NCBI GenBank assembly: GCA_014898425.1
Contig: RCSZ01000018.1
Coordinates: forward strand, 62,001-126,000
Direction: 5' to 3'
Origin: Botryotinia globosa
Taxonomy: Eukaryota; Ascomycota; Leotiomycetes; Helotiales; Sclerotiniaceae
DNA length: 64,000 nucleotides
Shown here: piece by piece, positions 1,874 through 63,366 of the stretch
How the letters are laid out: every line of letters starts with the position of its first letter
Numbering within the stretch: the stretch's first letter is position 1
Made by a program: the position numbers and the translations under genes
Notes under the pieces: model-generated
Told to the model about the DNA's origin: nothing
Database searches by the model: none
Seen by the model: only the letters and a program-made list of their open reading frames with translations

Positions 1874-2666
1874 AGTCGCCCACTCTACTTTAAGGCCATC
1901 TCTATTTTGAGCTACCCTTTCATATTAAAAATCACTTTTTTAGTTTGTTAATATCTCTATAAATACAAAATTCAATTTAATAAAACTCTATATTTATATA
2001 ATTCAAATTATTTTAATTTATATTTTAAATTTTTAGATTTTTAGAATTTTTTTGGATTGAAATTTCAAATTTCAAAATGTTGATTTTTGAATTTGTATAA
2101 AAATTATATAAAAATTTGAAGCTTTTATACAATCTTAAATAACTTTTTAGTAATAATTATTAAAAGAAAACCGTTCACCTTTTTATATTTCTTAAATCTA
2201 AATTTATATATAGACTCAAAAAAATTCAAAAAATTCAAGAAATATACAGATATAACTTAGATAAACAAATTTTTTTTTTCAACGTTTAATTATGAAAATT
2301 TCCTTATTCTTTTAAATTTCTAATGAAAATTATAATAAACTTATAATTAAATTTTTATTTTATTTTAATCATTCTTTTAAAAAGTTATTATAGATTTCAT
2401 GATATTTCAGATTTGTATATAATTTTTAATATAATTTTAATACAACTTGAAAATCAATATTTTAAAGTTTTAGAAATTGACTTACAAAAATCCTACAATT
2501 TTTAAATTTTTAAAATAGATTTAAAATAAGTTAAAGACATAAATATAAAATTTATTAAATTATATTGTATATTCACATTATTAGAAATATTAATAAATCA
2601 AAAAGTAATATTTGATATAAAAAGATAGTCTAAAAGAAAGATGACCCGAAAATAGAGTATTCGACT
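1874..2666. mobile_element. TA-flanked inverted-repeat element, family B copy 1
   Basis: The ends are AGTCG...CGACT. The inner terminal repeat in its best-preserved form reads agtcgactaccctactttcg, followed by gggccaccc. It is flanked by TA at 1872-1873 and 2667-2668, as expected for Tc1/mariner-type insertion. It is 793 bp long and non-coding. The copy at 10729-12005 has about 800 bp once its own insertion is removed, so the size of the family is consistent. This copy abuts the Harbinger-like element directly. Confidence 0.75.
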
Positions 2667-4071: not shown

Positions 4072-4422
4072 TTAGTTCTTGGTATTGTATTCATCATGTG
4101 GGTATGGGCCGAACTCAGTGCTCTGACGCTTGGTGTTGTATTCATCGTGTGGGTATGGGCCGAACTCAGTGCTCTGACGCTTGGTGTTGTATTCATCGTG
4201 TGGGTATGGGCCGAACTCAGTGCTCTGACGCTTGGTGTTGTATTCATCGTGTGGGTATGGGCCGAACTCAGTGCTCTGACGCTTGGTGTTGTATTCATCA
4301 TGTGGGTATGGGCCGAACTCAGTGCTCTGACGCTTTGCAACCTCGTTGAGCCTTGAACTAGGGGCAGCGGCAGCGAAGCTGGCAGCAAACGCCAAAATTG
4401 CGGTGATCTTGAGCATCTGCAT
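4072..4422 (-). CDS. Tandem-repeat secreted peptide precursor (dikaritin/UstA-type RiPP candidate)
   Basis: A 116-residue single-exon protein. Residues 1 to about 19 form a signal peptide (hydrophobic, ending in an Ala run), followed by a short spacer to residue 29. Five consecutive, identical 17-residue units (KRQSTEFGPYPHDEYNT) fill residues 30-114, and Lys-Asn closes the chain. Each unit starts with Lys-Arg, a Kex2-type processing site, so secretory cleavage would release five copies of a 15-residue peptide with N-terminal Gln, two Tyr, one Phe, one His and two Pro. This layout is that of UstA-like precursors of fungal RiPPs. The nearby UstYa-family genes (9.1 and 15.1 kb) and a prolyl-hydroxylase-type enzyme (7.5 kb) support this. 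A repeated mating-pheromone precursor has a similar layout, but the Trp/Cys pattern of ascomycete alpha pheromones is absent. The ATG at 4420-4422 fits the signal peptide and there is no alternative start upstream. Confidence 0.8.
   Translation of the reverse strand: MQMLKITAILAFAASFAAAAPSSRLNEVAKRQSTEFGPYPHDEYNTKRQSTEFGPYPHDEYNTKRQSTEFGPYPHDEYNTKRQSTEFGPYPHDEYNTKRQSTEFGPYPHDEYNTKN
4081..4335 (-). repeat. Five 51-bp coding tandem repeats
   Basis: Five head-to-tail 51-bp units encode the repeated peptide. The units are almost identical at DNA level. The only variation I see is a synonymous His codon: CAT in the two outer units and CAC in the three inner ones. Open frames on the opposite strand across this array are artefacts of the repeat. 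Confidence 0.95.
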
Positions 4423-5320
4423 GATGGCTTTAAGTAACTTGATGTTGAGTTGAAAGATGAAAATGGAAGAAATTTGATAATGTTTGACTTGTCAGTTGTG
4501 TGAGTCTGATGAAGATTCAGAGAGAGCGGGAAGAAGCAGCTTTAAATATTGTTGTCTCTTAGACTTTTCGACGAGGTGAGCATATCATGCAGAGTCTACT
4601 TTGTTGACTGGATCGCGCGGCCGAAGACAGTCACTTTTCGTGAACGCATACAAAATTCCGATAACATAGTTACGCTGACTGAAGGCTCCAGATACTTTGG
4701 GCAATAAGTCGATAGATCGCATGCGGACAAGTACATTAGAGTTCAGCGAATCAGCGATCCAATGCTCAAGTGAACTGGTAAGGGGATCGCTGTTAGAACT
4801 GCCATCTTAATCTAGCTCAGTTCAAAGCTAAAAAGGCTATACTGTAACATTCCTGTGTCAGGTACAACCGTTGCTAGCACTGGTCTACTTTTGATACAAA
4901 TTATAGTAATAACCTCAAATAGTAAAATTTTATGTATTAGTACCTCAAAAATTAAAGTTTATGACCATTATAGTCTCAAATAACATTTTTGATACTTCGG
5001 TATCTACTTCTTTAGTCTCTTTTTTCTTCTAGATAGAAACTTATTAAAATAAGAATTTCGAAATGCTATACTTTTTAAACCCCTCGAGAAAGACCAAAAA
5101 GAACGGAAAAGACTGAGATAATATATACAACAAATTATAAATTTATATAAAGAAAATAAACCCTGATTTAAATGTTTTAGTTTTTATCTTGAATGAACCT
5201 TGAAAATTTTAGAAATATAATGATTTTTCTTCATGAGTTTCAGGCTACCATGTAATTATTTTATATAAAAACTATTATAATAATACTCATAAAAATAGAA
5301 TGAAGTAGTATCAACTAATA
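4423..5320. promoter_or_regulatory. Upstream region of the peptide precursor, then start of AT-rich block
   Basis: The first roughly 400 bp upstream of the precursor ATG have ordinary composition. A TATA-like tttaaata lies at about 4541-4548, roughly 120 nt upstream of the start on the minus strand. A GC-rich patch, gcgcggccgaagacag, lies near 4614. From about 4880 the sequence becomes AT-rich and repeat-like up to the family B element at 5321. No gene is seen. Confidence 0.4.
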
Positions 5321-6400
5321 AGTCGACTACTCTATTTTCGAGCCACCCTCGTTTCAGGCCACTCTTTAATACCAAAATCACTTTTTTGATCTATTAATCA
5401 GGGTTAGACAGCGGGCGGGTATACCCCGGATAACCCCAGGTATTTACTCAGAAAATTCGATAGGTATCCGCCCTGTTATATCTTACAAGGTAGAGTAAAT
5501 ATATTCGAAATAAAATCTATATGATATTGTATTTGATATATATAATGAACTTTTTTTAAGTCTTATTCACTTATGAATAATATTAATAATGATAATGATA
5601 TTATTAAAGTTTTTATTATATAGAAAATTGATATATAAAATAAAGAAATAAAATTATTACTGTGGAAATTTCATGATTATAATCTTATATATTTGAATTT
5701 ACAAATTAATTAAAGATAATCTCAAATTTTCAAATAATAGTTATAAAATCATTATATAATATATTTCGAATATTCCAAAAACTTGATGAATTTTCTAGAT
5801 ATCTATTCTAATATATCTTATAAGATAAAGTAAATTCTCAAAAGGAATTAAAACCCCCAGGTAGAATACAGGTGCTGAACCCTAATATTAATATTTCTAT
5901 CAATATAGAATACAATTTAATAAAAATTTATATTCATATAATTTATACCATTTTAAATTTATATTAAAAAATTTTAAATCTCAAAATATCGATTTTTGAA
6001 TTTATACAAGAATTATATATAGGCTTTAATAACTTTTTAATAATAATTAAAGCTTTTTTTATTAAAAAGCTTCTGTGCTAATTCAAGTTTATATCAAAAT
6101 TCAAAGAAAATCGAAAAATTTAATAAATATAAAGATAAAATCTAAATAAACAAAAATAATCTTGATAATCTCCAAAATGCATTTTTAAAATATTTAATTA
6201 TAAAGATTTTCGAATTTCAGTTAGAATTTTTTAAAAAAATATTTTATAAATCTATAATAAATTTATAATTTCTTTATAAAAAACTCTAAAATCAATTTCT
6301 TTATAATAGATTTGAAATAATTTGACTTATATAAATGTAATCTTTCATTAAGTTGTATTTTATATTAATAGAAGGATTAATAGGTTAAAAAAGTAATTTA
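5321..6400. mobile_element. Family B element copy 2, right end lost
   Basis: It starts agtcgactactctattttcg after a TA at 5319-5320 and continues with the family B interior. The interior is interrupted at 5399-5884 by a hAT-like element and resumes exactly afterwards. Similarity to the right part of family B is traceable to about 6400, but the right terminal repeat is not found, so the end coordinate is approximate. Non-coding. Confidence 0.6.
5399..5884. mobile_element. hAT-like MITE nested in the family B element
   Basis: It begins CAGGGTTAGAC and ends GTGCTGAACCCTA, giving inverted CAGGGTT...AACCCT(G/A) ends as in hAT elements. The flanks are ctattaat (5391-5398) and atattaat (5885-5892), an 8-bp duplication with one mismatch. 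The terminal A in place of G is compatible with RIP. It is 486 bp long without coding capacity. Removing it with one duplication restores the family B sequence. Confidence 0.65.
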
Positions 6401-6573
6401 GATTTTTCTTATATAAATTTAATTATTGTATAATTATCTTGAATTTTTATATTAGATTTTAAATTTTAAATTTCTTATCATGAATAATCTAATATAATAT
6501 TAATATCGAAAAATCTCTAATTTATTTTTAAATATTTTAATTGAAAGATTATATAAATTTTTAATTTGGACTA

Positions 6574-6723
6574 TGTCACGGCGCCAACTACGTTGCCTTC
6601 GTGCCTTAGGCACGAACCCTTAGCGTGCCCCTAGCGTGCCCTACTTCCTATAATAGGGCCTCAACCTTTCATAGCACTTAGAACCCTTATGATACAATAT
6701 AAGTCTTTACCTGTACCTTGACA
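6574..6723. mobile_element. Short LTR-like insertion with perfect 5-bp duplication
   Basis: A 150-bp unit begins TGTCACGGCGCCAACTACG, ends CTTGACA and is flanked by GACTA on both sides (6569-6573 and 6724-6728). It is much richer in GC than its surroundings. A second, longer copy lies at 23530-23690. TG...CA ends, 5-bp inverted tips (TGTCA/TGACA) and the 5-bp duplication indicate a solo LTR or a terminal-repeat retrotransposon remnant. Confidence 0.7.
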
Positions 6724-6728
6724 GACTA

Positions 6729-7467
6729 TTTTTTTATATAAATTAAATTAAAGTTTTGAAAAATTTGAAAGTTTTTGTAGATTTTTATAAATCCTTTTCA
6801 AAAATATAACTTAAAAAATATTTCAAAATAAATTATATCTTTTTTTTTAATATTTTAAACAATTCTAAATCTTTTTATAATATAATTTTCATGTTTTTTT
6901 ATGTAATAATAAATAAATTGAAATATAAAAAACTAAATAATTATATATTTTAATTAGAAAAGTGTTATATATACTATGAGCAGGGGCTACAACTCTTATT
7001 ACTAGTCGAGATACGAATATACAGAGTTCTGCTCTATGAGGGTTATTACCATATAGATTATATTACCCTGATCCCACACTAAAAGACATCAAGGTATTCC
7101 GGCGATATTCCCTTAGGAGGAAAAACTGTACATCTTTTCTGATATACAAGGGATCACAACAGACTGTCATATTGCCGGAAAACAGGGCTCGGCGGATCGG
7201 CCCACAAAATAGTGTTGCACCACCTCCACCTCTTGGTATAACTATTATCCCAGCTGCCGGCACAAAGTCAAGGTTATTAAGTCTCCTTGGCGTATGCTAT
7301 AGTTTGCATGTCTTATCTTGTGCCATTGTGTTACCATCGAGCATATAAGGCGGGTCAAATATCTTTTCTATCACCCAATTACCCTGTCACAAAAGTGTTT
7401 CAAGTCTTTGTGATTCCTATTCGGGACTTTCTCAAGACTTATATTAGCACAATATTGTTTAAACGAA
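6729..7467. other. Repeat remnant, then upstream region of the oxygenase gene
   Basis: From 6729 to about 7000 the sequence is AT-rich and parallels 23160-23370; both end in a gtgttatat...agcaggggcta-type segment. From about 7030 composition is normal and forms the likely promoter of the gene at 7468. A GC-rich patch, ggctcggcggatcggcc, lies near 7187. No gene is supported; a 66-codon minus-strand frame at 7063-7263 shows nothing recognisable. Confidence 0.45.
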
Positions 7468-8286
7468 ATGGCTCTCAAGCATATTTTTTACATTTCTTCC
7501 ATCGTGGCTCTACTTGCTGCAGTATTTTCAGTTGTTTCACCATCCATAACGGTACCTGGCTTCTTGGCCGGAAACTCCTGTTCGCAACCACAATACATAG
7601 TCCGCACCTTGTCATATGATCCACTTATCCAACACATCGAGAACTTTATCACTCCTCGAGAGGCTGCTCACCTGGTCCAGATCGCGTAAGTCATGGTTTC
7701 GATGGCAAATCCAGGTAACGGTGCTAATGAGTCGTGCAGACAGTCTAAGTTCCGCCCCTCTCGTGCCATAGAAATTGATGGGCGGGTAGTAGCTACATAT
7801 GAGCGAACCAGTTCCACTGCATATCTGCCTTCGGACGATCCTATCGTCCAATGCATTAGGTCCAGAGCTTCAGAGTTTCAGGGTTACGTTGACCTTGAAA
7901 TGATGGAGAGCCTGCAGGTAACGCGATATCTAGAAGGCCAGCAGTATATGAATCACTACGACTGGGCAATCAACCCTGCCGCGAGAAATCAAACAACGAA
8001 CAGGGAGACCACTTTTTTCGCCGTGCTTGATGTGGAGTGCTCTAACTGCGGGACTCGTTTTCCTAAGATCTCGGTAGACTGGAGAGTGGAGGATCAGAGA
8101 TGGTGCAGTATTGTTGATTGCAAGGCTACGAACGAGTTAACAGTACGTGGGGTTGCGGGCAGTGCTGTGTTTTGGAGAAATCTCCATTCTAATGGAACTG
8201 GGGATACGCGCACGCTACATGCTGGACTCCCCGCTCTGGGTGGCAAAAAGGTCGGATTGAATATTTGGACACGTCGAGAAGTTTAA
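7468..8286 (+). CDS. Prolyl-4-hydroxylase-type 2-oxoglutarate/Fe(II) oxygenase
   Basis: Two exons, 7468-7685 and 7740-8286, with a 54-nt intron (GTAAGT, branch GCTAATG, GTGCAG), encode 254 residues. The N-terminus is hydrophobic (about residues 5-27), a signal peptide or membrane anchor. The catalytic core shows the iron ligands of the prolyl 4-hydroxylase alpha-subunit family: His145-Tyr-Asp147 in NHYDW, distal His233 in LHAGLP, and Lys243, ten residues further, for 2-oxoglutarate. The Cys-containing insert before the distal His is usual in fungal members. Such enzymes hydroxylate peptidyl proline or small substrates using 2-oxoglutarate and O2. Its position between the Pro-containing repeat precursor and the UstYa genes suggests it modifies the core peptide; this is inference. 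All catalytic residues are present, so the gene looks intact. Confidence 0.85.
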
Positions 8287-9090
8287 TCCTCCCATTTGAA
8301 TCCACAGAGAAGGCAGTTACCTCATTTACGAGGTATTTTTTTACGCTTTGCTTTTCCAGATATTTTGTAATCACCAGCCTTCTCCTTTCGTACGGAGTGT
8401 AAGCGAAGGCCAGTGATTAGTAATGAGCATGTTTAGTCAATGAAAACTCAAATCAAAGTACTTTGTACTCGGCGACCGACGTGGGCCAATGATTATGCTT
8501 ACTAAGTTAAATTAATAAAGTGGGCTAAACTACGGAATGATCCGATCACAAAGCATGCTATCCCTGCTATTGAATTGATATCCCACTTTTGTATGCTAGG
8601 GAAAACTTAAAAATAAACCTTTTTTTATGAGGGGAAAATAGTGTGATCTACTATAGTATGCATGCAGACTCTCTACCTAGCCCGATCTGGTCAGCTCTTG
8701 TTGACTTTCAAGGTTTCATCCCATTGAACCTCGCTGCTACTTTCCCCGAGCAATTTAAGCATTCCAGAGCTGTCAAACAGAAAGGGAGTTGTTCTCATGT
8801 GGACAAGTGGACTAGCAGCCAGAAAATCAGATCTCAATAATGGAAAGACAAGGCATAGTGTGCTCCACTCCCGTTAGTTGGTAGAATAGCCTTCTAGGCT
8901 CGTTAAGGAAGCGTACACGGTCAGAAAAGATAGAATTCCTTATTGCTGCCAATTTGCTGGGCCATGTATGAAAACAAGAGGGCCTGTAATACCTATCGAC
9001 GCTCTCAAGAGAACTCCACACCATACCATTGACATCTCTTCTCTTCTACTTTCAACACTTTTCGATTTTAGTACCGCTTCATTTACTCCA
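8287..9090. other. Intergenic region between oxygenase and first UstYa gene
   Basis: About 800 bp of normal composition holding the 3' region of the oxygenase and the promoter of the next gene. Open frames at 8643-8840 and the 41-codon upstream extension from 8968 show no conserved features. I see no repeat or RNA gene. Confidence 0.45.
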
Positions 9091-10054
9091 ATGGAAGAAA
9101 ACAAGCTACTTGGACGCACTTCCTCGTCAGACGATGATGCAGAAGATACAACATTCGCTAGCAGAATCAAACGCATTCCTAATCGTGAAACTTTCTTCTC
9201 TCGCATACAGATATTTCGTTGTTGTCTTGAGGTCATTCTCATTGTCTGCCTTCTTGGTACGACAGCTCTTATTTTGAGGAATGACACAATCAAATCTGGC
9301 GCCTGTGATAATCAGGTTTGGCCGGCAGGAAGTGACTACAATCATTTTGTACCTCATGGTAAGTCTCCCTTGCCAGTCAAACATCCTGATCACTCGAAAG
9401 TCACTGACTTCAAGAACAGATGTCAGCTCAAGGGGTATCCCCAAGCCCTCTGGTCCAGATCAGTACCAGATAGATGCCGATGCATTTCATGACCGCAGTC
9501 TATTCAATCAAACTCTAAGCTCATGGCAAGGCCTTTCTCACGGTAAAGGAGCTCTTTAAAAATTATCCAATATGTTGAGCATGTCTAATCGAGAGATACT
9601 TAGCGTTTGTACGAGCCAAGCCATATGATGGCAGCGGACCTCAAAAGATGTTTGCAGGAGATCTGTTCGAAATTGCCGCACTTCATCAAATGCATTGTCT
9701 AGTAAACGGTTTTCCCGTTCCTGACACTTGAATTCACGCTTCTAACCTCTATGACAGACATCTATACTTGAGGACTTTGGTCTTCTGGCTGCCGGAATCC
9801 CCAAAGAAAAACTTCCGGGTTACCACAGTGGTGTAACGTTGACATGGGAAGAGCATAAGGCACATTGTTTTAACTACGTCCGGCAAGCTTTGATGTGCTT
9901 CGCTGATTCTACTGCCGAAGGGCACATTGAAGGCGACCCCCATCGCGTGGCTGATCATGGAGTAATGCACGTTTGTAACGATTTTGATGCCTTGCTAGCG
10001 TGGTCCAAGGAGCCAGAGAGAATTTTGCCTAAAAGTTGGAGGGTGACCGATTGA
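9091..10054 (+). CDS. UstYa/DUF3328-family membrane protein (first copy)
   Basis: Four exons, 9091-9358, 9420-9542, 9604-9701 and 9758-10054, separated by 56-61-nt introns with CTGAC, CTAAT and CTAAC branch sites, encode 261 residues. An acidic cytosolic tail precedes one membrane segment (about 43-62). The family signature is complete: His158-Gln-Met-His161-Cys162 in a LFEIAALHQMHCL context and His196-Lys-Ala-His199-Cys200 followed by FNYVRQ. UstYa-family proteins catalyse oxidative cyclisation or related oxidations of peptide side chains in fungal RiPP pathways; the paired HxxHC motifs are thought to bind metal. The start at 9091 gives the usual short acidic N-terminus; an in-frame ATG at 8968 would add 41 residues of unlike composition. 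No single exon carries both motifs, so a single-frame search would miss the gene. Confidence 0.85.
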
Positions 10055-10728
10055 GAAAAAGATTTGTTTGTAGTTATATTTGAAGAAATGGAAGTTCAAC
10101 TTTTCAATTGAGCGAACAATCTGATAGTTCTTGATGCAAAAAAAGAGGATACATGTGAAGGGAGCGATTGAAATGGCAACGCGCTAGTTGGACCCTAAGC
10201 CTAATAAGGAACCACGGAAAATCCAAATACCAATGAAAATATCTAATTGAATACTATGGTTTGCATTCAAAACAAGTGGATGCTATAAGGACTTTCTTTT
10301 CAATTGAATCAGTTAATCACATTTAAATTTCAATTATCTAAATTTATAATATAGAATTTGAAAATAAGCTTATGATTTTGATTAATATAAAGTATAAAAG
10401 ATTCAAAGGTCCTTATGATTTTATAATTGAAAATCTATATGTAAAAAAGCTTCTTATTACAAAAAAGAAAAAAAGATTGAAGTTAGTTTTTTTCACAAAA
10501 AGGGGGATTGAATAATACTCGATTGAGTTTAGTTTTTTTAGCGTGTTGTTATTTCAATCGCTCCCCATGTAAAGACTCACTATAGAAAATAAAATATTAA
10601 ATACAAAACAAGAAAGAATAGACGGTTGTATAGAAAGAATATAGTATACCAGCGAAAATATATTTAATAGATTTTTAGAAAACATAACTATTCATATACA
10701 TTCTTTTATACTTCATAACATATATTTA
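10055..10728. other. 3' flank of the UstYa gene grading into AT-rich repeat
   Basis: Normal composition to about 10300, then AT-rich. A longer imperfect inverted arrangement is visible: cgctagttggaccctaagcc and gattgaaatggcaac near 10160-10200, against gcgtgttgttatttcaatcg near 10540-10560. This suggests another decayed inverted-repeat element of about 400 bp. No gene. Confidence 0.35.
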
Positions 10729-12005
10729 AGTCGAATACCTTACTTTCGGGCCACCGCTCTTTTTGGCCACTCTTTTATATCAAAAATGACTATTTAGTCT
10801 ATTATTATCTCTATTAATATAGAATATAATTTAATAAAAATATATATTTATATAATTCAAATTATTCTAGGTTTCTATTAAAAAATTTAGATTTATAATA
10901 TCTTTGTAAATCGATTTCTAAAGTTTCAAAATATCGATTTTCAATTTATATAAAAATATCATACAAATTTAAAATTTTATAAAATCTATAATAACTTTTG
11001 AGAAAAAATAGTTAAAAGTAAGTTATGAAATTTTGTAATAAATTTGTAAGAAATATATTCCGATAGATCTTAAAAAAATTAAAGATTCTTTATAAATAAA
11101 TATTTAAAAAGATATTCTCAAAATTGTAAGAATTATTTTTATTATTATAAATTTATTATATATTTTATCTCTATACTTATTTATTTATTTAATTTTTTTT
11201 GAGTTTTTATATAAATTTAGATTTGAATTTTTCAAAAAGATATATAATTATCTTTTAATAATTATTATTAAAAAGTAATTAAAAAGTTATTGAAAATTAT
11301 ATAAAAGTTTGAAATTTGTATTTGATTTTTATATATATTCAAAAGTCGATATTTTGAAGCTTTAAATCTCAATCCAAAAAAAATTCTAAGATGAATCTCA
11401 AATAATTCGAATTACATATATATAAATTTTTATTAAATTATATTCAATATTGATGGAGATATTGATAAACTAAAAAAGTGATTTTTTGATGTATAGTACT
11501 AGGGCACAGATAGTTGTCGGACGCTAAAATCACACTAAAAATGATCATTTTGTTCTATTTATATAAATAAAAAAGAAATATTTAAAATCATTAAAATTAT
11601 TTAAAATTTAAAATATGTTTTTATTATATAATAAAAACTTAGAATTAATAATTTTTATAATTCTAAAATCTTAGAATATTATTATTTATAAGATTGAAAT
11701 TGAATTCAAAAAAAAGTTCTTAATTTTCGCTTATTTTACTAGTAAATTTCGATACCTTTAATTTATATCAACTTTCTATATAGATTTTATAATCAAAAAA
11801 AATCCTAAAAATAAATCATATTTTTATTATTAAATTTTACTTGAAAATAAATAGAAAAATATAAAATATATTTAATTAAATCTATATTATTATCAAAAAA
11901 TATATAGATAATCTATATAAGTTTTGGTGTGATTTTAGCATCCAACAACTATCTGTGCCCGGTTACTGTAAAAGGGTGGCCCGAAAGTAGGGTGGGTGGT
12001 TGACT
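10729..12005. mobile_element. Family B element copy 3 with nested TA element
   Basis: The left end agtcgaataccttactttcg and the right end (gggtggcccgaaagtaggg ... gact) are inverted repeats, flanked by TA at 10727-10728 and 12006-12007. Total length is 1277 bp; subtracting the nested element at 11494-11968 and one TA leaves 800 bp, close to the 793 bp of copy 1. It sits between two RiPP-cluster genes. Non-coding and RIP-like. Confidence 0.8.
11494..11968. mobile_element. 475-bp TA-flanked inverted-repeat element, family C copy 1
   Basis: Long terminal inverted repeats begin tagtactagggcacagatag on the left and, read as complement, cagtaaccgggcacagatag on the right. The match continues through a GCTAAAATCACAC motif. 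TA is present at 11492-11493 and 11969-11970. It is inserted in the family B element above. The copy at 35539-36014 has the same ends and size (476 bp). It is probably a Tc1/mariner-type MITE; no coding capacity. Confidence 0.8.
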
Positions 12006-12168
12006 TACATTATCTCCTTTCATCTCCTAGAAAACATGGCACAACGAAAGTAAAAATTTGTAGCAAAGAGCAGTCCAAAAAATGATTTACAACGTGTTGA
12101 CACTAAGTGCTTTTTAAACAACTACATTTGTAGGTATCCCGTGAAGCTATCTAAGAAATCATGGAGCA

Positions 12169-12870
12169 CTATACCATGTTTAAGTGTCCATTATGGTGCT
12201 TTTGTACACCTTCCTTTGCCTTCCCTGGAAAGTCCTTCGAGAAGTGACCGCAATCCGGATATTGAATTTTTGCCCTGACCTCAATGTCATCCGGGTCATT
12301 GATTCTCGTCAAGACTTGTGAACAGTGTTCCGTGTGGGTCAAGACATCTTCTTTGTGAACCATTCGACCTTCGGTCAGTGCTTTGTGGAATCTGAGAATG
12401 TTGTAGGCGCAATGAGTCTTGTGCAGTTTATTGGTGAGGTAGACGTGTTGCATGTCGGAGCCGAATTGTTCTTCAGTGACTGACGTAGTTTTGTTCTGAT
12501 CGGTATAGAATATCCACGGCCCAGCTTTGCGGAACTTTTCTGTCAGGTCTCGATCAATGCACTCATCCGGAACCCAGCAGAACGAAAGAACGTCGAAGTG
12601 ACATCCTCGGGCTAGCGCTTCACTGGATGAGTTTCCGCAGGGACTTTTGAGGATTCGTTGAGGGTTGGTATGGGTAGGCAGGAAGATAGACTGGAAAGCC
12701 CAAATGACTGAGAGTGCAAGTAAAACACTTGAGACGAGGCCGATTAGAAGCATAGAGCAGGTCCTATGACGGCCTTGAGTTGGCGGTGAAGTAGCAAAAG
12801 AAATCGAATTCTCATCTTCGTCTTCGTTGAGCATAGGAAGTTTACTTTCATCTGTATCTTGGAAAGCCAT
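12169..12870 (-). CDS. UstYa-like HxxHC membrane protein (divergent copy)
   Basis: A single-exon protein of 233 residues. An acidic N-terminal tail is followed by one membrane segment (about 38-59). A Cys-rich luminal region (CGNSSSEALARGC, then a FCWVPDEC segment) precedes two HxxHC motifs: His150-Lys-Thr-His153-Cys154 and His179-Thr-Glu-His182-Cys183. The motif pair and topology are those of UstYa-family oxidases, but the surrounding sequence differs from the two canonical copies and the gene lacks introns. It resembles small fungal membrane proteins with a GC-FD-W-P-C pattern often seen near secondary-metabolite genes. A role in peptide oxidation is inferred from motif and position. The ATG at 12868-12870 is the first in frame. 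Confidence 0.65.
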   Translation of the reverse strand: MAFQDTDESKLPMLNEDEDENSISFATSPPTQGRHRTCSMLLIGLVSSVLLALSVIWAFQSIFLPTHTNPQRILKSPCGNSSSEALARGCHFDVLSFCWVPDECIDRDLTEKFRKAGPWIFYTDQNKTTSVTEEQFGSDMQHVYLTNKLHKTHCAYNILRFHKALTEGRMVHKEDVLTHTEHCSQVLTRINDPDDIEVRAKIQYPDCGHFSKDFPGKAKEGVQKHHNGHLNMV

Positions 12871-15054
12871 GTTGTTGACGAGCTCGATGGAAGTCTTGAC
12901 AAGCTTGTGATACTCCTAGGTGGGAGATTTTTGGTTTTCTGGGCAGTATATATGAATGCAAATGTAGCGATTGGAAATATTTGGCAATGGTTTACAGCGA
13001 TCAAACAGCAAAGCGGCTTTCAAAGTATGAGATTGAGGATACTTCTAACCATAGCTTCCTGTTATGGCTCGAGATACGTCTTGTCCACTTCCCCAGCAGT
13101 CCGACCAAATACTCGTGCGGCCAGAAAGTATGCAACTCCGGCGCTATGAAAACCAGGTTAGTCCTCTTGTAGTTTACCATCCTGTGGTATGTGCATCTAG
13201 CGTTGGAGTTGCATACTTTCTGGCCGCACGAGTAACTCACTTGGCTAACTAACCATGTCACCAAGAGACTGGGGAAACTCGATCACTCCGTAACTTGCCG
13301 ACTCCTAAGCTCCTTAATCGCTCGGTATCAGGCCTGATAAATGCTACATCTATATTCTAGAGGATTCATTGGTTCACAACACATGTTAGCTATAAAGTAT
13401 CACGATATGATAGATATGACATTTAGCCATAACTAAACTCGAAAAGTTTATTCTTAGGTTCATCCCACTCTTCCCATGTACAGTCTTTTATTTCTAAGAT
13501 TGTGGTGTACTCGGAGAATCAGATGGTGTGACTTTAAGGTTAAATACCCTTCTTGTTTCCCACTTTATGTTGACAGCGGGGCCCATCAAATAACCTTTAT
13601 TCTTTGGGATATCCACAAACCTTAATATATCTTAGTGTGAACTAAATATCCTTGTTCATATTCTCGATTGATGATAGATAGAAGTTATCAATTAACATTT
13701 GTTTGGAAGGCACTCGAGCTATCTGTAAGCCCAAAGATACCTCGTGAGAGATGGACTGTTCGAAAGCCTCCGTTAGAGTTGAACAACACGTAACCTTATC
13801 ATAAAATCTGGGCATACAAGAGCCTTGTCTTTGATGAGTGCCGGGTCTGTATGCATGTGGGAAATGCCTAAACATCGAGACCTTAGTTTTTTTTTTCATT
13901 GAACAGAAATTCGATTTGTGAGGACGTGAAAGTGGAGCAAGTGATAGCAAAGCAATTGTACTTCGTAGTCATTGATGAGGCTCTAATAAATCATGATCCA
14001 ACGCAAATGAGCTACTGTAACAGATCAGGTGACTATATCCGTGCGCCCGACACAATCAACCTTACTCAACGTCAATTATCAAAAAATAGGTACTTTGATA
14101 AGATTATAGAAGCATAGGAGTATATATTAATATTAGTACTAGTATGTAAACTAACTGAGAAACAAGATACTTCTTAAAGTCAAGTAAATATTTATATATA
14201 AATGAGATAAATTTTCTTTGGGAGAGAACTAGAAGGTACATATGATGTAATAATATACTAAGAAAAGAATTTACTATAAAATTCTATATTTCTTCTCTGT
14301 TATTTTTTAAGGATTCAATCAGCCATCTTAACTCATGTATAATTATAATGTTTTATCTTATTACGCTCAAAAAACGCGGTAATATAGAATTATACTATGG
14401 TTCTTCAAAATGTACATTTTACTCAACTCTAGCTTCAGTATAGCGGTAATGATAATGAGTTCAACCAGTGTTTCACAAGAGGTATACCCTAGCACCGTCC
14501 ACTCAGTTCAATCAGATAGTTAATCAACAAAGTTAATGTACTCGTATACTCGTTTAAGTAGCCTTTACCAATTTCAGCTCAGTGGAGTTAAGCTAACGGT
14601 TCTCGGATGTCACCCCCTGAAATATTACCCCGCTAGGCTTGTCAGATACTTAAGTGCTATTCCCCCCACAGTGGAGAATACAGAACAGGTATCATGATTC
14701 ATGAAGGTGGCAGTCAAGATCGCAGTCAAGGTTGTTCTACAGCTCTCGAATTCATCAGCTTCTTTTGCTTATCAGAAGTGATCTCGTATTTTGACTTTCC
14801 ATGAAGAAAGATACAACGTTGTTTCATGGGTTGTTCTCGCAGTCCAGTGAGATTATGCGTGAAACGCGGTTCCTAGAATCACTCTCGAGATAATCATTGA
14901 CCTTAGTTGGGATTTTCAGCTATTGCACGATCACGATTCTTTGCAAAGATTCTCTAGTTTACACTGAGAAATTCTGTATCCACAACATCAAAATCTACCA
15001 CCTATACACCAGCTATTCATCAGTGAACTTCTGTTCAAATCTTCTGTTGCAAAT
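12871..15054. other. 2.2-kb spacer between divergent UstYa-type genes
   Basis: Composition is ordinary and the stretch serves as upstream region for both flanking genes. It holds a 125-bp hairpin-type inverted repeat (13110-13234). Short open frames at 13642-13950 (minus) and 13899-14117 (plus) have no recognisable domain and overlap one another; I do not call them. A missing cluster gene, if present, would have to be small or degenerate. Confidence 0.45.
13110..13234. repeat. Perfect 30-bp inverted repeat with 65-nt loop
   Basis: The left arm is 13110-13139 (tactcgtgcggccagaaagt and ten more bases) and the right arm 13205-13234 is its exact reverse complement. The loop is 65 nt. The pair lies 240-365 bp upstream of the start of the minus-strand UstYa-like gene. 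A smaller partial palindrome (taccatcctgtggta) lies inside the loop. It could be a MITE relic, a regulator-binding palindrome or a transcribed hairpin. Confidence 0.9.
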
Positions 15055-16123
15055 ATGTCATTCATAAAGCTCTTTTGGGCCGACAAGACTACAAATTACG
15101 TCTCTGTTGAAGATGGCTCTGACACCGAAGATCGAGCTACAGTAACAACCAGCCTTTCTTCAAAAGTATCAGTTTCTAGGTCGTTCTACTTCTTTTCCTT
15201 ATCTCTTTTTATCCTCTGCCCAGTTCTTGTTGTCGCCTTGTTTGTGCTACATGGTCGTCTTTCCCAAGCCCAAATCAACGACGGTTTTCTCAAAGGCTTC
15301 ACTACCGAGTTAGGTATTTATCTTCATTGAATGAGAATCCAGTCCACTAGCTAACCATATGACATTCCATAGATCCCATTAAGAGTGTAATTTCTGAACA
15401 AACTGTTCGTTTCACTGGCGGTCTTCACTACCACGAAAATGGGACATTATACCGGGAGACGATCGAAGGGGAGCCTCAGTATGTTGGGAACCCCTCCCCA
15501 GAGATAGATGCAGCATGGAATCAACTACTCAAGGGTATGGAAGTAGATGTAGTGATTACCACATGCAACTAACTAATCGTAGGTCAATATGTGAACCTTG
15601 TTGGAGACGAAGCCTCGAGTATGACCGACCGGACATGGAAAGATGATCATGGTAACTACGAAGTTGCGTGAGTTTACTATCCTCCTGTATTTTATGTCTG
15701 CTGGAAGCTGATGAGTAAGAAAAGTCTAGATGTGATGCATACCCTTCATTGTGTGGTGAGTTGACGTGAACAACTTGAAGTGCCTTGAGCCTGCCTAGCA
15801 AGACAGTTAACAAAGATTTAGAATAAAGTGAGAATGGCTTTAGATCCGGATTATTATCCAAGGAAGGAAAGCCATAGGATCCATAGGATACACGTTGGTG
15901 AGTAATGCAACATGACTCGTATAGAATAGCGTCACTGATTGCAACTAAAGACCACTGTGTCGACTATCTCAGACAGATTGTGCAGTGCCATGGGGACCTC
16001 ACCCCCATGGTTTTCAGTTGGTCAGATAACGCTGGTAGAGTGGTGGCCGATTGGAAAGAACCTCACACTTGCCGGAACTTCCATCAAATCCGCAGTTGGG
16101 CTGAAGATCATTTCCGGCCTTGA
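15055..16123 (+). CDS. UstYa/DUF3328-family membrane protein (second canonical copy)
   Basis: Six exons (15055-15313, 15373-15534, 15583-15667, 15725-15755, 15822-15897, 15951-16123) joined by 48-66-nt introns encode 261 residues, all junctions in frame. One membrane segment lies at about residues 44-66. The luminal part has the family block YVGNPSPEIDAAWNQLL (123-139), the first motif His174-Thr-Leu-His177-Cys178 and the second His203-Val-Asp-His206-Cys207, followed by VDYLRQIVQC. These are the hallmarks of UstYa oxidases that tailor ribosomal peptides in ustiloxin-type pathways. The 31-nt exon 4 carries the first motif and is easily missed. The gene is intact and lies about 11 kb from the precursor, with two decayed transposons between. 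Confidence 0.88.
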
Positions 16124-17286: not shown

Positions 17287-18834
17287 TCAAGTAGCATCAT
17301 CTGGCAACTTAAAAATCTCTCTCAATCTTTCTTTCATTTCCCCAACCGGAGCAAAACTACCGCTCGTTCCCGACTGATCAGTTGTGACCTTGAAAACTTC
17401 ACGACCATTCTCGTCTTCATCTTTATCTCGGCTATCTTTGTTCTTCTCCTCGTCATCATTGTGAACGCTAAGAAGTGGGCAGTGATACTCTTTGCATACT
17501 GCCGTTGAGATAGGGCACGGTGGAGGCTTCATGCCTAGTACGATCTCAGAAGACGGGGCACTTATCATCTGTAGGTTAAATATCAAAGTATTCTCTGTAT
17601 CCCAGTCTTCTGCGTAAAAGTCATCGACTTCTATATCTTGCACAATGTTTGTATTTGTATCTGCAAACATTACATCTCTTTTCTCGCCGTAACTCTCTTT
17701 TATCGCCACATGATGCTCCAGCAAACGTTTCTGTGCTGCTGTCTGGGGCATATATTTTTGAGCAGCATGAGATTTTGGCCCGCTAGCTGAACTAAGGGCC
17801 AGAAAAAGTTGTGAGCCCTTTAGAGAAAGTTAGACCAACCCAATTCATTTGAATCTTTGACATCGAAGATGTATGTAATCATAACTTACCGCCATAACGC
17901 CATAAGATGTTAAATAATGATCTTGTGACGAGTCAGCAATTGGTCATACAACTTGCCGAATTGACTTACGACGTTCAAGCTGATAACCTGCAAAGAAAAT
18001 TCGTTGTTCATCCTTGGGAATGCCAGTAATTCCATGGATCTTTTCGATGAGAGCGTCCACGACAGTTTCGAGAGAGACATTTATACGAATGACTTTTCCT
18101 GAGAGCATCTGCACAGTGATAGGGATGCGTTTAATCGAGTCCAGCTCTAGTGGTACAATCTCAAACCTTATTCCACGAATACCGTCAGTCGCTTTGATCG
18201 ACGATTTGATTGACGATATGACGGTCTGATTCGGGGTTGGGGCCGCAACAAACTGCATGATCTTGTCTCCCTTTATCTTAACACCGTCCAAACATCTTTG
18301 ACCAAGAGTCCCGGCTAGAATGTAATCTTGGATTGAACTCTTTTCGTAAAGTAAGGCTATACGTCTGAGATCCACTGATAAGGATTCTGTGCTCAATTCT
18401 CCAGAAACGGCATTCACGCCATCGACAATGACCTTAACCGCGAAAAATCCATTTGACTCGAAATGAATCCACATTGCCTCACGCTCTTTTAGTTTAGGTC
18501 AGTATTTTTTTAACCCGATGTATTATATCTAGTCAATGACCAGGAGAGGAATAGACTCACGATAAACTGGAATAAATACTCCATCTTTTGTACATATAGA
18601 TTGATCAAATTTATCCTTGTAACCATCTACTGGGTAGATTGGAAAAGGTCCCAAATCTGGAGGCACTTTCAACCGATTGCCGCTTTCTGGAACACGAATA
18701 GTGCGTCGAAATGATATATCGAGGATATCCCCTTCAATATTGCTGACACGAAGTTGCTTGAAACCTGTTGTGTCTAAGAGAGGCTCTCTCAACTCAACCT
18801 TCAAGCGGTTGTCAGGCCCAACTAAATTCTCCAT
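17287..18834 (-). CDS. Ubiquitin-fold domain protein without Gly-Gly terminus
   Basis: Four exons in gene order, 18834-18561, 18485-17970, 17921-17890 (32 nt) and 17817-17287, joined at clear GT...CTGAC/CTAAC...AG introns (48-75 nt), encode 450 residues. An N-terminal region leads into a block (EAMWIHF, then QDYI, then LDGVKIKGDKIMQFVAA) that I associate with fungal ubiquitin-domain proteins. A ubiquitin-like domain follows at about 212-286 (ITVQMLSGKVIRINV ... GIPKDEQRIFFAGYQLERH ... YGVMAGSQLFLAL). Where ubiquitin has LRLRGG this protein has LALSSASG, so it cannot be conjugated as ubiquitin is. The C-terminal 160 residues are acidic, with no domain I recognise. Function unknown; a scaffold or proteasome-interaction role is possible. 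Nothing ties it to the peptide cluster except position. Confidence 0.7.
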
Positions 18835-59943: not shown

Positions 59944-62049
59944 TTAAAGACCGGAGTCGGTCTTGAGATAAGGAGCTTGAGATGGGTACCATGCATTCCA
60001 CTTATTGCAGGTATTTGTCAATGCTGGCGAGATTGGATTTACAGCGTTGATCTGATTTTTGGTTTCCAGGAATTGTACCGCGAGACCTTCGCTTACATGC
60101 CATGCCTAGTTTATGTGTTAGTATGAGTATTCTGGGAAGTGGTTTATGGAAAGCAAATACTTACAATATGACAATGCATTAACCAAGCACCAGGGTTGTC
60201 AGTTTGAAATGCTAGAACCATCCATCCTCCAGCGGGCAACATGGCAACATCTCTTCTAGTTGGGTTGTCATAATCAAGGTTTTGTGCATTGATTGTGTTG
60301 TTGTAAGTTCCAACTCCTGTACCCAAGAGGAAAAAATCATGACCGTGTAAATGCATTGGATGTGGGACGTTAATAGAAACTGGGTTTCCGTTGACGTTTC
60401 CAGGTACTTCTTGAATGATCCAATAATACCATTGAGCGGCATTGGGCAATTCAATTAAATTCTCTGAAGCAGGCCAGGAATTGTTGCCATCGAGTACGTA
60501 TTGCAGGATGGGTTTCTTCCAGTCGACATCAATGGCACTGAGGTTGATTCCCCATGTTACGATTGGTCCGCTGGCATCGACACCAATATTGATGGCGACG
60601 TTGAGTTGATCAACATTTCCACTAAGTGGACCACTGGGCACAAAGCTATCCCAGAAAGGAATGAGTCCAGTTTCATCGGTACATCTTCCAGTGTATGGAG
60701 TAGCTGAAGATGATGGAGTGGTACTTGCTGCTCCTGAATAGGTGAAGATACTCTTGATGTTTCCATTATTGTTGTTAGTACCGCACCCATTCTGAACTTC
60801 AGCTCGGAACCAATAGCTTCCAACAGTTTGGTTGGCAGTGATGATGACGTCATATCTTTGGCCGATACCGATAAAAATCCAGTTTGTGGTGTATGGGACA
60901 ATGGGCACAAAATCACTTGTGATCACAGTAAAAGCATGGTTATCTAATGACACCATGAAATGATTGTCGACTGAAGTGTTTATGAGACGAAGACGGTACT
61001 TTTTGCCTGCGGTTATAGTGTTCGTGGTATATTTTCCACCAGTTTGACCGGCAGGGGCGATCATACTGCCGTTGATGAGTCCATTGTCACCCGATGGTGG
61101 CCCAGCCTGAGAATGAGCTATTCTTTCACCGAGTGCAAACACTGGAGTGTAATACCAGTCTGAGATGGTGTATACTCCAAGATCAACATCATAGTTAGAA
61201 GTCGCGGGCCCATTGATTACGATTCCACCGATCATTCCTTCGCCATATTGAGCGGAGAAATGACTGTGATACCAGCTCGTGCCGAACTGGGTCGCTTGGA
61301 AAGTGTATGTCTTGGTATCACCGGGAGCAAGGGGACATTCTGTAATTCCTGGTACACCATCCTCTGTACAGGTGTGGTATTGTCGAAGTCCGTGCCAATG
61401 AATACCAGTACCGTTATCTGGCATGGAATTCTTCAAGGTAACTTGGATCATATCACCCCACTAAAAGTATGTTAGCAATTTAAACATGTTACGAGAGCAA
61501 CGATAAAAGTCTTACGTCAGCATATAGGGTTGGTCCAGGATATTGGCCATTAACCAACATGCAATTTTGGCGGGTAACTCCATCGGGAGCACAAGTCGTG
61601 TTGGTCACTTCCCAATTATATTTCCTGGTGACACCAGTGTTGGGGTTCTTAGTATCAAAATCAGTTGCAATACTGAAGCCATTGCCCCAACAGGCTCTGG
61701 TGAATGGCGAATTAGTGCAAGCAGGATCAGCGACCAGACTAGAGAGAGCAGAGGTGGAGCTTGAGCTTAAAGTTGTCGTGGTACCAACAGAAGTTGACGT
61801 GCCTGAAATAGTTGTTGAAACATTCGAAGATGATGAGCCAGCTGATGACGACTTCAAGGTTGACGAACTTGAGGACTTGGAGGTACCAGATGATGTTTTT
61901 GATGAAGTACTGGAAGCTTTCGATGAAGTGCTTGTCTTGCTACTGGAGACCGTCTGTCGTTTCAATAGACCATCACGTTCATTAACTTGAGCTGGAAGGA
62001 TTGCTCCAATGGCAGCGGAAGACAAAAGTAGAATATTCAACAACTTCAT
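59944..62049 (-). CDS. Laccase (multicopper oxidase) with Ser/Thr-rich linker
   Basis: Three exons, 62049-61516, 61460-60165 and 60105-59944, with 55- and 59-nt introns (the second with a perfect TACTAAC branch), encode 663 residues. A signal peptide is followed by a Lys-Arg prosequence site (LLKRQTVSSS). About 65 residues of almost pure Ser/Thr/Lys/Gly come next, then the ascolaccase start (DPACTNSPFTRACWG). All four copper-binding motifs are present: HWH (199-201), HSH (243-245), HPMHLHGHDF (545-554) and HCHIAWHVSEGL (607-618, Leu at the axial T1 position). The chain ends in Asp-Ser-Gly-Leu, the C-terminal plug typical of ascomycete laccases. It is a secreted phenol oxidase that reduces O2 to water. 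The frame extends three codons upstream, but the first ATG is at 62049. Confidence 0.93.
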
Positions 62050-63366
62050 TTTGAGCAAGTTAGAGAAAGAAACTTGAGGGAATTGATCTGAAGAGAGTAA
62101 TATCTGCGCATTAAAGTGAGACTTGATGTATTTATCTTGTCAGATCAACACTCAGACAGTTTTGACTAGCATGGAGATGCTTTTTCTGGATTCCCATGTC
62201 GATGCACACGAGATCGCGGTCCCGTCTCTGACACGAGGTGAGGCTCGACTGACAAGGAGGAGAAGCAGCCATCACAGTGTTACCACACGCGCTATCAGAT
62301 GGCACTGTAAATCAAAAACTTTGTGTCTTATTTGCATCCCGGGATGGAACATCCAATGACCAAAAATTACTGTGACTTCAGCTGAAAACATTTCATGTTC
62401 AATCGTCTGATTTGTTGATTGAAATCAAGATTCTGGATCAGGATTACTTCAAAGGTGTACATCACTTTACATGATGCCAATCCTCAAGAACTAGAATGAT
62501 AAGACTTAGTGCATGGCTTGTGATATTGGTAGAAAAAATCAGGCACGGCAGCATGGTACATATGCTGTCAGCCCTCGGACAATACTGTAGTTGCTTTGGT
62601 GGCACGCCAAGATTCGTTCAAACTTCCACATCCGAGATTCTACGGGAAAAGATGATAACAATAGCAACAGTTGCATCTCACACGATTATTGGCATATGTA
62701 TGCTTCCCGTTTCCGAAGATATCCACATGAAGATTATCAATATCACGATCTTATGCCGAGGCCGAATTTCTTCATGTTTGCGAGGCTGAAATGTTCAGGT
62801 GTGATCCTTCTTCATGGAATAGATGACTAGCTCGCTTGGCTTTGGCCGTGTTGATCTTTGACGGGTTGATGGGCCTAGGATTTCTTTTGTGCCGTAGAAC
62901 TTAAGATCGATGGTTTATGGAAGATCTCGTGAGTGCAAATTCAGTCAACCTACCAATTTTGCTTACTCAGACTTGCAGAAACCCCTTGGAAAGGCTGAAG
63001 AATTAGTCTAGCGTCTGGGCACCTGGAACTGAGCTTCAATTGGGCCTAAGTCGTCCGTTATTCACGAACTTTTGACGCTAAATTACATTCAATTCATCCG
63101 CCGGAAGCATCCGACGGAAAATAAATATACGAAACAATACTAAATCACATGAATCACCAAAAAGAGTCAAAAGGGTCCAATGAATCTTTGATTTTGTAAT
63201 AAAAATTGACAAAACAATATTATGCAGCTGTTTTTGATAATCTGCAGCCTATCCTTGGCTTAAAATTAGTGAGCCACAGCAGCGGCTCGTTTATTTATCG
63301 GCTTAGTCTTCAGGCTTCTGGCGCACGTGTTTACCCTGCATCAGGGCTTCTTTTTTTCACAGGGTA
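62050..63366. promoter_or_regulatory. Laccase upstream region and spacer to repeat block
   Basis: A 1.3-kb stretch. The first few hundred bases are presumably the laccase promoter, with TATA-like tttatct/tacatcaag on the minus strand near 62125. A coding-like but short reading at about 62680-62830 (plus) has aromatic and His-rich residues and could be a gene remnant; I do not call it. A near-palindrome, tccgccggaagcatccgacgga, lies near 63096. Confidence 0.4.

What the first reader, a model, noticed from the sequence alone, without database searches (positions are those of the whole stretch)
4072..16123. Candidate fungal RiPP cluster (dikaritin/ustiloxin type) scattered among decayed transposons
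Seen: a secreted precursor with five identical Lys-Arg-bounded repeats, two UstYa-family genes with complete paired HxxHC motifs once introns are removed, a third HxxHC membrane protein and a prolyl-4-hydroxylase-type oxygenase, all within 12 kb. Known: UstA-type precursors plus UstYa oxidases define ustiloxin, phomopsin and asperipin-type pathways. Inference: this locus makes a new oxidised peptide whose core contains the EFGPYPHDEY segment. No P450, methyltransferase, protease, transporter or regulator is recognisable, so the set is either minimal or incomplete.
Basis: partly seen in the sequence, partly recalled or inferred. Interest (0 to 1): 0.93.

Follow-up and report, generated by a model that had tools for sequence, protein, structure and literature searches.

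The report
Botrytis gene cluster for modified peptide
A short stretch of a grey-mould relative's genome carries what looks like a small, conserved set of genes for making a secreted, chemically modified peptide, including a proline-hydroxylating type of enzyme whose role in such clusters is untested.

Summary
The window lies in Botryotinia globosa (P4H exons equal EAF00_011371; contig of 770,863 b). Within 12.1 kb are a secreted precursor with five identical 17-residue Kex2 units; a prolyl-4-hydroxylase-like oxygenase (P4H); two intact UstYa-family genes, each with two HxxHC motifs; and a third membrane protein with two HxxHC motifs and no Pfam family at cut-off.

New evidence: precursor relatives in B. 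narcissicola, five Colletotrichum species and one unnamed source share (T/A)EFGPYP plus a following Tyr. Close relatives of the P4H and of the third HxxHC protein occur in Botrytis, Rutstroemia, Colletotrichum and Diaporthe. Exact contig lengths put two cluster genes together in four other species, on contigs under 10 kb in two. In this genome 4 of 6 distant paralogs of the third HxxHC protein lie within 2.1 kb of UstYa hits.

Best reading: a dikaritin-type RiPP cluster whose core is oxidised by UstYa enzymes and probably hydroxylated at the GPYP prolines. Kex2-repeat/UstYa pairs are known to be common, so the kind is known; the conserved P4H and Pfam-less partner look like a new variant. No product, expression or chemistry is shown, and UstYa genes were not checked in relatives.

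The parts
4072..4422 (-). precursor: signal-peptide-like N-terminus, five identical KRQSTEFGPYPHDEYNT units
   Evidence: only match in the genome; seven relatives
7468..8286 (+). prolyl-4-hydroxylase-like 2OG-Fe(II) oxygenase, two exons (7468-7685, 7740-8286), N-terminal hydrophobic segment, HxD...H...K kept
   Evidence: PF13640; solved P4H relatives; EAF00_011371
9091..10054 (+). UstYa-family gene 1, four exons, HQMHC and HKAHC
   Evidence: PF11807; exon phases
12169..12870 (-). single-exon membrane protein with HKTHC and HTEHC, no Pfam family at cut-off
   Evidence: model with each motif in its own helix
15055..16123 (+). UstYa-family gene 2, six exons, HTLHC and HVDHC (second motif split by an intron)
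   Evidence: PF11807; exon phases (exon 4 start corrected by hand)

Best explanation
This is a compact dikaritin-type RiPP cluster. The precursor enters the secretory pathway and Kex2 cuts after Lys-Arg, releasing five copies of a peptide beginning QSTEFGPYP. The two UstYa-family oxidases, and probably the third HxxHC membrane protein, oxidise the core, most likely by a cross-link or desaturation that uses the conserved Tyr or Phe. The P4H-like oxygenase, which also carries an N-terminal secretory-type segment, hydroxylates one or both prolines of the invariant GPYP. Shown: gene content, open frames, motifs, conservation of the precursor core, linkage of some gene pairs in other species. Inferred: Kex2 cutting, the order of steps, the reactions, and that all five genes act in one pathway.
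For: 23 of 23 counted repeats in 8 proteins keep [T/A]EFGPYP with a Tyr soon after, 21 of 23 with KR ahead of the Q (the count takes only repeats that match the pattern, so one degenerate repeat in P0003 is left out). The precursor is the only match in the genome and lies 5.4 kb from a UstYa hit; 0.6% of the genome lies within 5.5 kb of such a hit. Exact contig lengths shared by two proteins of one species: C. sublineola 7,859 b (precursor P0006 and HxxHC P0019), C. limetticola 9,689 b (HxxHC P0016 and P4H P0027), C. tabaci 855,242 b and Rutstroemia 2,405,129 b (HxxHC and P4H). The 12 cluster-type P4Hs (P0020-P0031) group together on mostly short branches; the fork has support 94/92, just under the tree program's 95/80 star. 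The P4H site motif is found in 11 of these 12; P0031 has an aberrant C-terminus. 98.6% of putative fungal pheromones lack UstYa neighbours, 22% of KEPs have them (PMC7329392, passages).
Against: No expression, peptide or mass data. No annotated precursor was found for B. cinerea, although it has the P4H and the HxxHC protein. Linkage of the P4H to the precursor itself in another species is not shown directly; it goes through the HxxHC protein. The two Diaporthe helianthi proteins are listed on different contigs (6,934 and 8,431 b). The third HxxHC protein could not be shown to be a UstYa relative (hhalign probability 1%).
Confidence: 0.8

Rival explanations
1. The precursor makes a linear Kex2-processed secreted peptide (signal or effector) and the oxygenase and UstYa genes belong to another pathway that happens to be adjacent.
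For: Most KEPs (74%) have no UstYa neighbour and no pheromone annotation (PMC7329392, passages); the precursor lies at the edge of the set, 3 kb from the P4H across an AT-rich block.
Confidence: 0.12
2. The precursor is an alpha-type mating pheromone gene.
For: Same signal-peptide and KR-repeat design (design of pheromones from PMC9233826 and PMC7329392, passages).
Against: No pheromone family among its Pfam matches up to E 1, all of which were below cut-off; published pheromone genes almost never sit beside UstYa genes; only 7 relatives were found, in a few genera.
Confidence: 0.02
3. The P4H is a bystander with a general secretory or wall-protein substrate; the RiPP is made by the UstYa and HxxHC proteins only. 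(Not exclusive of the rest of the best explanation.)
For: P4H-like relatives of 33-60% identity occur in many other fungi and metagenomes, with no link to such clusters tested.
Confidence: 0.3
4. The cluster is decaying and makes nothing, being enclosed by AT-rich repeat debris.
For: AT-rich, repeated blocks beside and between the genes; no transporter or peptidase recognised.
Against: All five genes are open with consistent splice phases (one exon edge set by hand); the variation among the five repeats is silent.
Confidence: 0.08

Closest known systems
Ustiloxin, phomopsin and asperipin-2a clusters (dikaritins)
   Same: Signal peptide, Kex2-separated repeated Tyr-containing cores, neighbouring UstYa-family proteins with two HxxHC motifs (definitions from passages in PMC12048977, PMC10512285)
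   Different: Different core (TEFGPYP..Y rather than YxIx of ustiloxin and phomopsin); no tyrosinase, methyltransferase, peptidase or P450 recognised; a P4H-like oxygenase and a Pfam-less HxxHC protein instead
KEPs with DUF3328 neighbours (survey PMC7329392)
   Same: Same gene pairing; survey tables name Botrytis, Botryotinia, Rutstroemia and Colletotrichum (passages)
   Different: GPYP is not in the main text (term search); supplementary lists were not readable here, so the type may already be catalogued there
Epichloecyclins and victorin
   Same: Secreted multi-core precursors from plant-associated fungi, counted among dikaritins in PMC10512285 (passages; also PMC9233826, passages)
   Different: Other cores and accessory genes; victorin is chlorinated
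Prolyl 4-hydroxylases (PF13640; e.g. 2jig, 7zsc)
   Same: HxD...H...K site; sequence match E 7.6e-11 and 3.8e-12
   Different: Small, with an N-terminal hydrophobic segment, and physically beside a RiPP-type precursor

Membership tests
Dikaritin RiPP cluster | precursor with secretory signal and repeated Kex2-separated core | tested here: met
   five KR-bounded units; signal peptide judged by inspection, no predictor run; homologs keep a similar N-terminus
Dikaritin RiPP cluster | UstYa/DUF3328 protein with two HxxHC motifs close by (class-defining enzyme, as quoted in PMC12048977) | tested here: met
   two genes, PF11807 E 1.6e-15 and 6.2e-17 on last exons; motifs (one motif read across an intron by hand)
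Dikaritin RiPP cluster | Tyr in the core | tested here: met
   GPYP and a following Tyr in 23 of 23 counted repeats
Dikaritin RiPP cluster | tyrosinase, methyltransferase, peptidase or transporter (older five-gene definition; not required later, PMC12048977 passages) | tested here: inconclusive
   none recognised among the ORFs scanned; not every ORF was scanned
Dikaritin RiPP cluster | UstYa-dependent cyclised or desaturated product | not testable with these tools
   needs LC-MS/MS and deletions
UstYa family (third HxxHC protein, 12169-12870) | match to PF11807 or profile similarity | tested here: inconclusive
   1 of 12 relatives matches PF11807, at E 0.1 only; hhalign probability 1% against 3 UstYa sequences; yet an N-terminal helix and two HxxHC 29 residues apart (31-32 in two own-genome UstYa proteins), each in its own predicted helix
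Prolyl 4-hydroxylase | 2OG-Fe(II) family match with HxD...H...K | tested here: met
   PF13640 above cut-off (30 and 29.1 bits, cut-off 27); motif; solved relatives
Prolyl 4-hydroxylase | 4-hydroxylation of peptidyl proline | not testable with these tools
   needs enzyme assay

The most novel reading that the evidence does not exclude
The cluster makes the first hydroxyproline-bearing dikaritin, by pairing UstYa oxidases with a 2-oxoglutarate prolyl hydroxylase on the same secreted core; and the Pfam-less HxxHC protein is a second, unrecognised family of UstYa-like oxidases or partners that recurs at other UstYa loci.
Probability: 0.35. Interest if true: 0.7.

Novelty: new variant of a known kind. 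Interest (0 to 1): 0.52.

Why it matters
Only five dikaritins had been reported by 2022 (PMC10512285, passage). This gives a predicted core conserved between Botrytis-type and Colletotrichum plant pathogens, an enzyme pair not seen together in the listings of my literature searches, and a candidate new HxxHC protein family to screen for beside UstYa genes. All are directly testable by deletion and mass spectrometry.
Full report
Where it is. The genome search places the window at C18:62001-126000 of a 45.7 Mb assembly of 27 contigs; that contig is 770,863 b long. The best P4H match is EAF00_011371 of Botryotinia globosa, 100% identical, on a contig of the same length. B. globosa belongs to Leotiomycetes, Sclerotiniaceae; Colletotrichum to Sordariomycetes.

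What is there. The precursor (4072-4422, -) has a short hydrophobic N-terminus and five identical KRQSTEFGPYPHDEYNT units; the DNA copies vary at two silent third positions. To its right are a P4H-like gene (7468-8286, +), UstYa-1 (9091-10054, +), a single-exon HxxHC membrane protein (12169-12870, -) and UstYa-2 (15055-16123, +). All exons are open. UstYa-1 splices in phase throughout. For UstYa-2 the first exon-4 start that I tried was out of phase; an AG five bases upstream restores phase and leaves HTLHC intact, and the last intron splits HVDHC. That correction is by hand. On each side of the set lies a ubiquitin-domain gene; the two are related (38% and 32% identity over two ORF pairs). 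They are not recognisable biosynthesis genes.

Is it more than chance. The precursor is the only match to itself in the genome. UstYa family hits number 37, in 22 loci when hits within 15 kb are joined; both are lower bounds. 0.6% of the genome lies within 5.5 kb of such a hit, and the precursor is 5.4 kb away; the P4H is 1.5 kb away, with 0.26% of the genome within 2 kb. The genome search found only one weak second match to this P4H and one other PF13640 gene. These figures take random placement as the null; secondary-metabolite genes do cluster, so they overstate surprise somewhat.

Relatives. The precursor search gave 7 proteins: Botryotinia narcissicola, five Colletotrichum species and one unnamed. 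The pattern [T/A]EFGPYP occurs in 23 repeats of the 8 proteins including the window's; 21 of 23 have KR ahead of the Q, the others TR and WR. Gly-Pro-Tyr-Pro is invariant in the alignment. The third HxxHC protein gave 12 proteins including itself: Botrytis/Botryotinia, Rutstroemia, Colletotrichum, Diaporthe and unnamed, with both HxxHC motifs kept in all 12. The P4H gave 89 proteins. The first 12 (P0020-P0031, 77-100% identity) are from the same genera plus two unnamed; apart from a Botrytis galanthina fragment (P0092), the next named one, Lachnellula, drops to 60%. A tree of 31 that I chose from the 89 groups those 12 with fork support 94/92. The search reaches only relatives sharing short exact words, so absence elsewhere is not shown.

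Linkage elsewhere. The protein search lists the length of the longest contig that holds each protein. Equal lengths within one species occur four times: C. sublineola 7,859 b (precursor and HxxHC), C. limetticola 9,689 b (HxxHC and P4H), C. tabaci 855,242 b and Rutstroemia 2,405,129 b (HxxHC and P4H). The two short contigs show close linkage; the long ones show only the same contig. The contigs themselves were not seen. Diaporthe helianthi has the two proteins on different short contigs, which says nothing either way; no annotated precursor appeared for B. cinerea, which counts somewhat against. The UstYa genes of these species were not examined.

The third HxxHC protein. It has no Pfam family at cut-off; 1 of 12 relatives touches PF11807 at E 0.1, and a profile comparison with three UstYa sequences failed. 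Still, it shares with UstYa an N-terminal hydrophobic helix and two HxxHC motifs about 30 residues apart, each in its own helix in the predicted model. Six distant paralogs lie elsewhere in the genome; four of the six are 0.55-2.0 kb from UstYa hits while 0.36% of the genome is within 3 kb of one; the other two are on contigs without any UstYa hit. Two of the four are neighbours in one cluster; counting them once gives three of five, with a binomial chance of 4.5e-7 under random placement. The simplest reading is a partner or remote relative of UstYa.

Comparison with the literature. Kex2-processed repeat proteins beside DUF3328 (UstYa) genes are published in quantity: 22% of KEP genes in a survey of 1,461 genomes, mean distance 3.09 genes (PMC7329392, passages). 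Nine dikaritin clusters were called in Venturia inaequalis by such criteria (PMC9632046, passages), and four pairs of adjacent DUF3328 genes in Sclerotinia sclerotiorum (PMC6941272, passages). Two HxxHC motifs and a signal-peptide repeat precursor are the working definition (PMC12048977, passages). So the kind is known. I found no paper with this core and saw none pairing a prolyl hydroxylase with UstYa in a fungal RiPP cluster in the listings (8 of 8 papers listed; 12 of 209 listed). Supplementary tables and subscription papers were not searchable, so the core may already be catalogued.

Verdict. A real, open, conserved dikaritin-type cluster with two unusual members. Confidence 0.8 that the precursor is modified by at least one of its UstYa neighbours; about 0.55-0.6 that the P4H acts on it.

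Noticed in passing
G000 C8:2477802-2483535, C12:1483508-1486719, C17:1034600-1036966 (L029, L030, L031): Other loci in the same genome where UstYa-family hits sit beside relatives of the Pfam-less HxxHC membrane protein; the C8 locus has three UstYa hits and two such relatives.
   Followed up: partly
window 1900-2600: AT-rich self-inverted repeat found again in 40 scored regions out of 299 candidates (101 matches, both strands), full-length copies mostly 71-73% identical; resembles the remains of a palindromic mobile element.
   Followed up: partly
window 17944-18834 (-) and L010 9028-9919 (-): Two related ubiquitin-domain genes lie one on each side of the cluster (32% and 38% identity), suggesting an old local duplication.
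   Followed up: partly
L024 3734-4200 (+): Tandem KREPELSYVNS repeat in frame, no signal peptide seen, near a UstYa locus on C4; probably a simple DNA repeat.
   Followed up: no
window 60144-62058 (-): Multicopper oxidase (laccase-like), with an adjoining Ser/Thr-rich ORF upstream that may be its N-terminal exon, 44 kb from the cluster.
   Followed up: no
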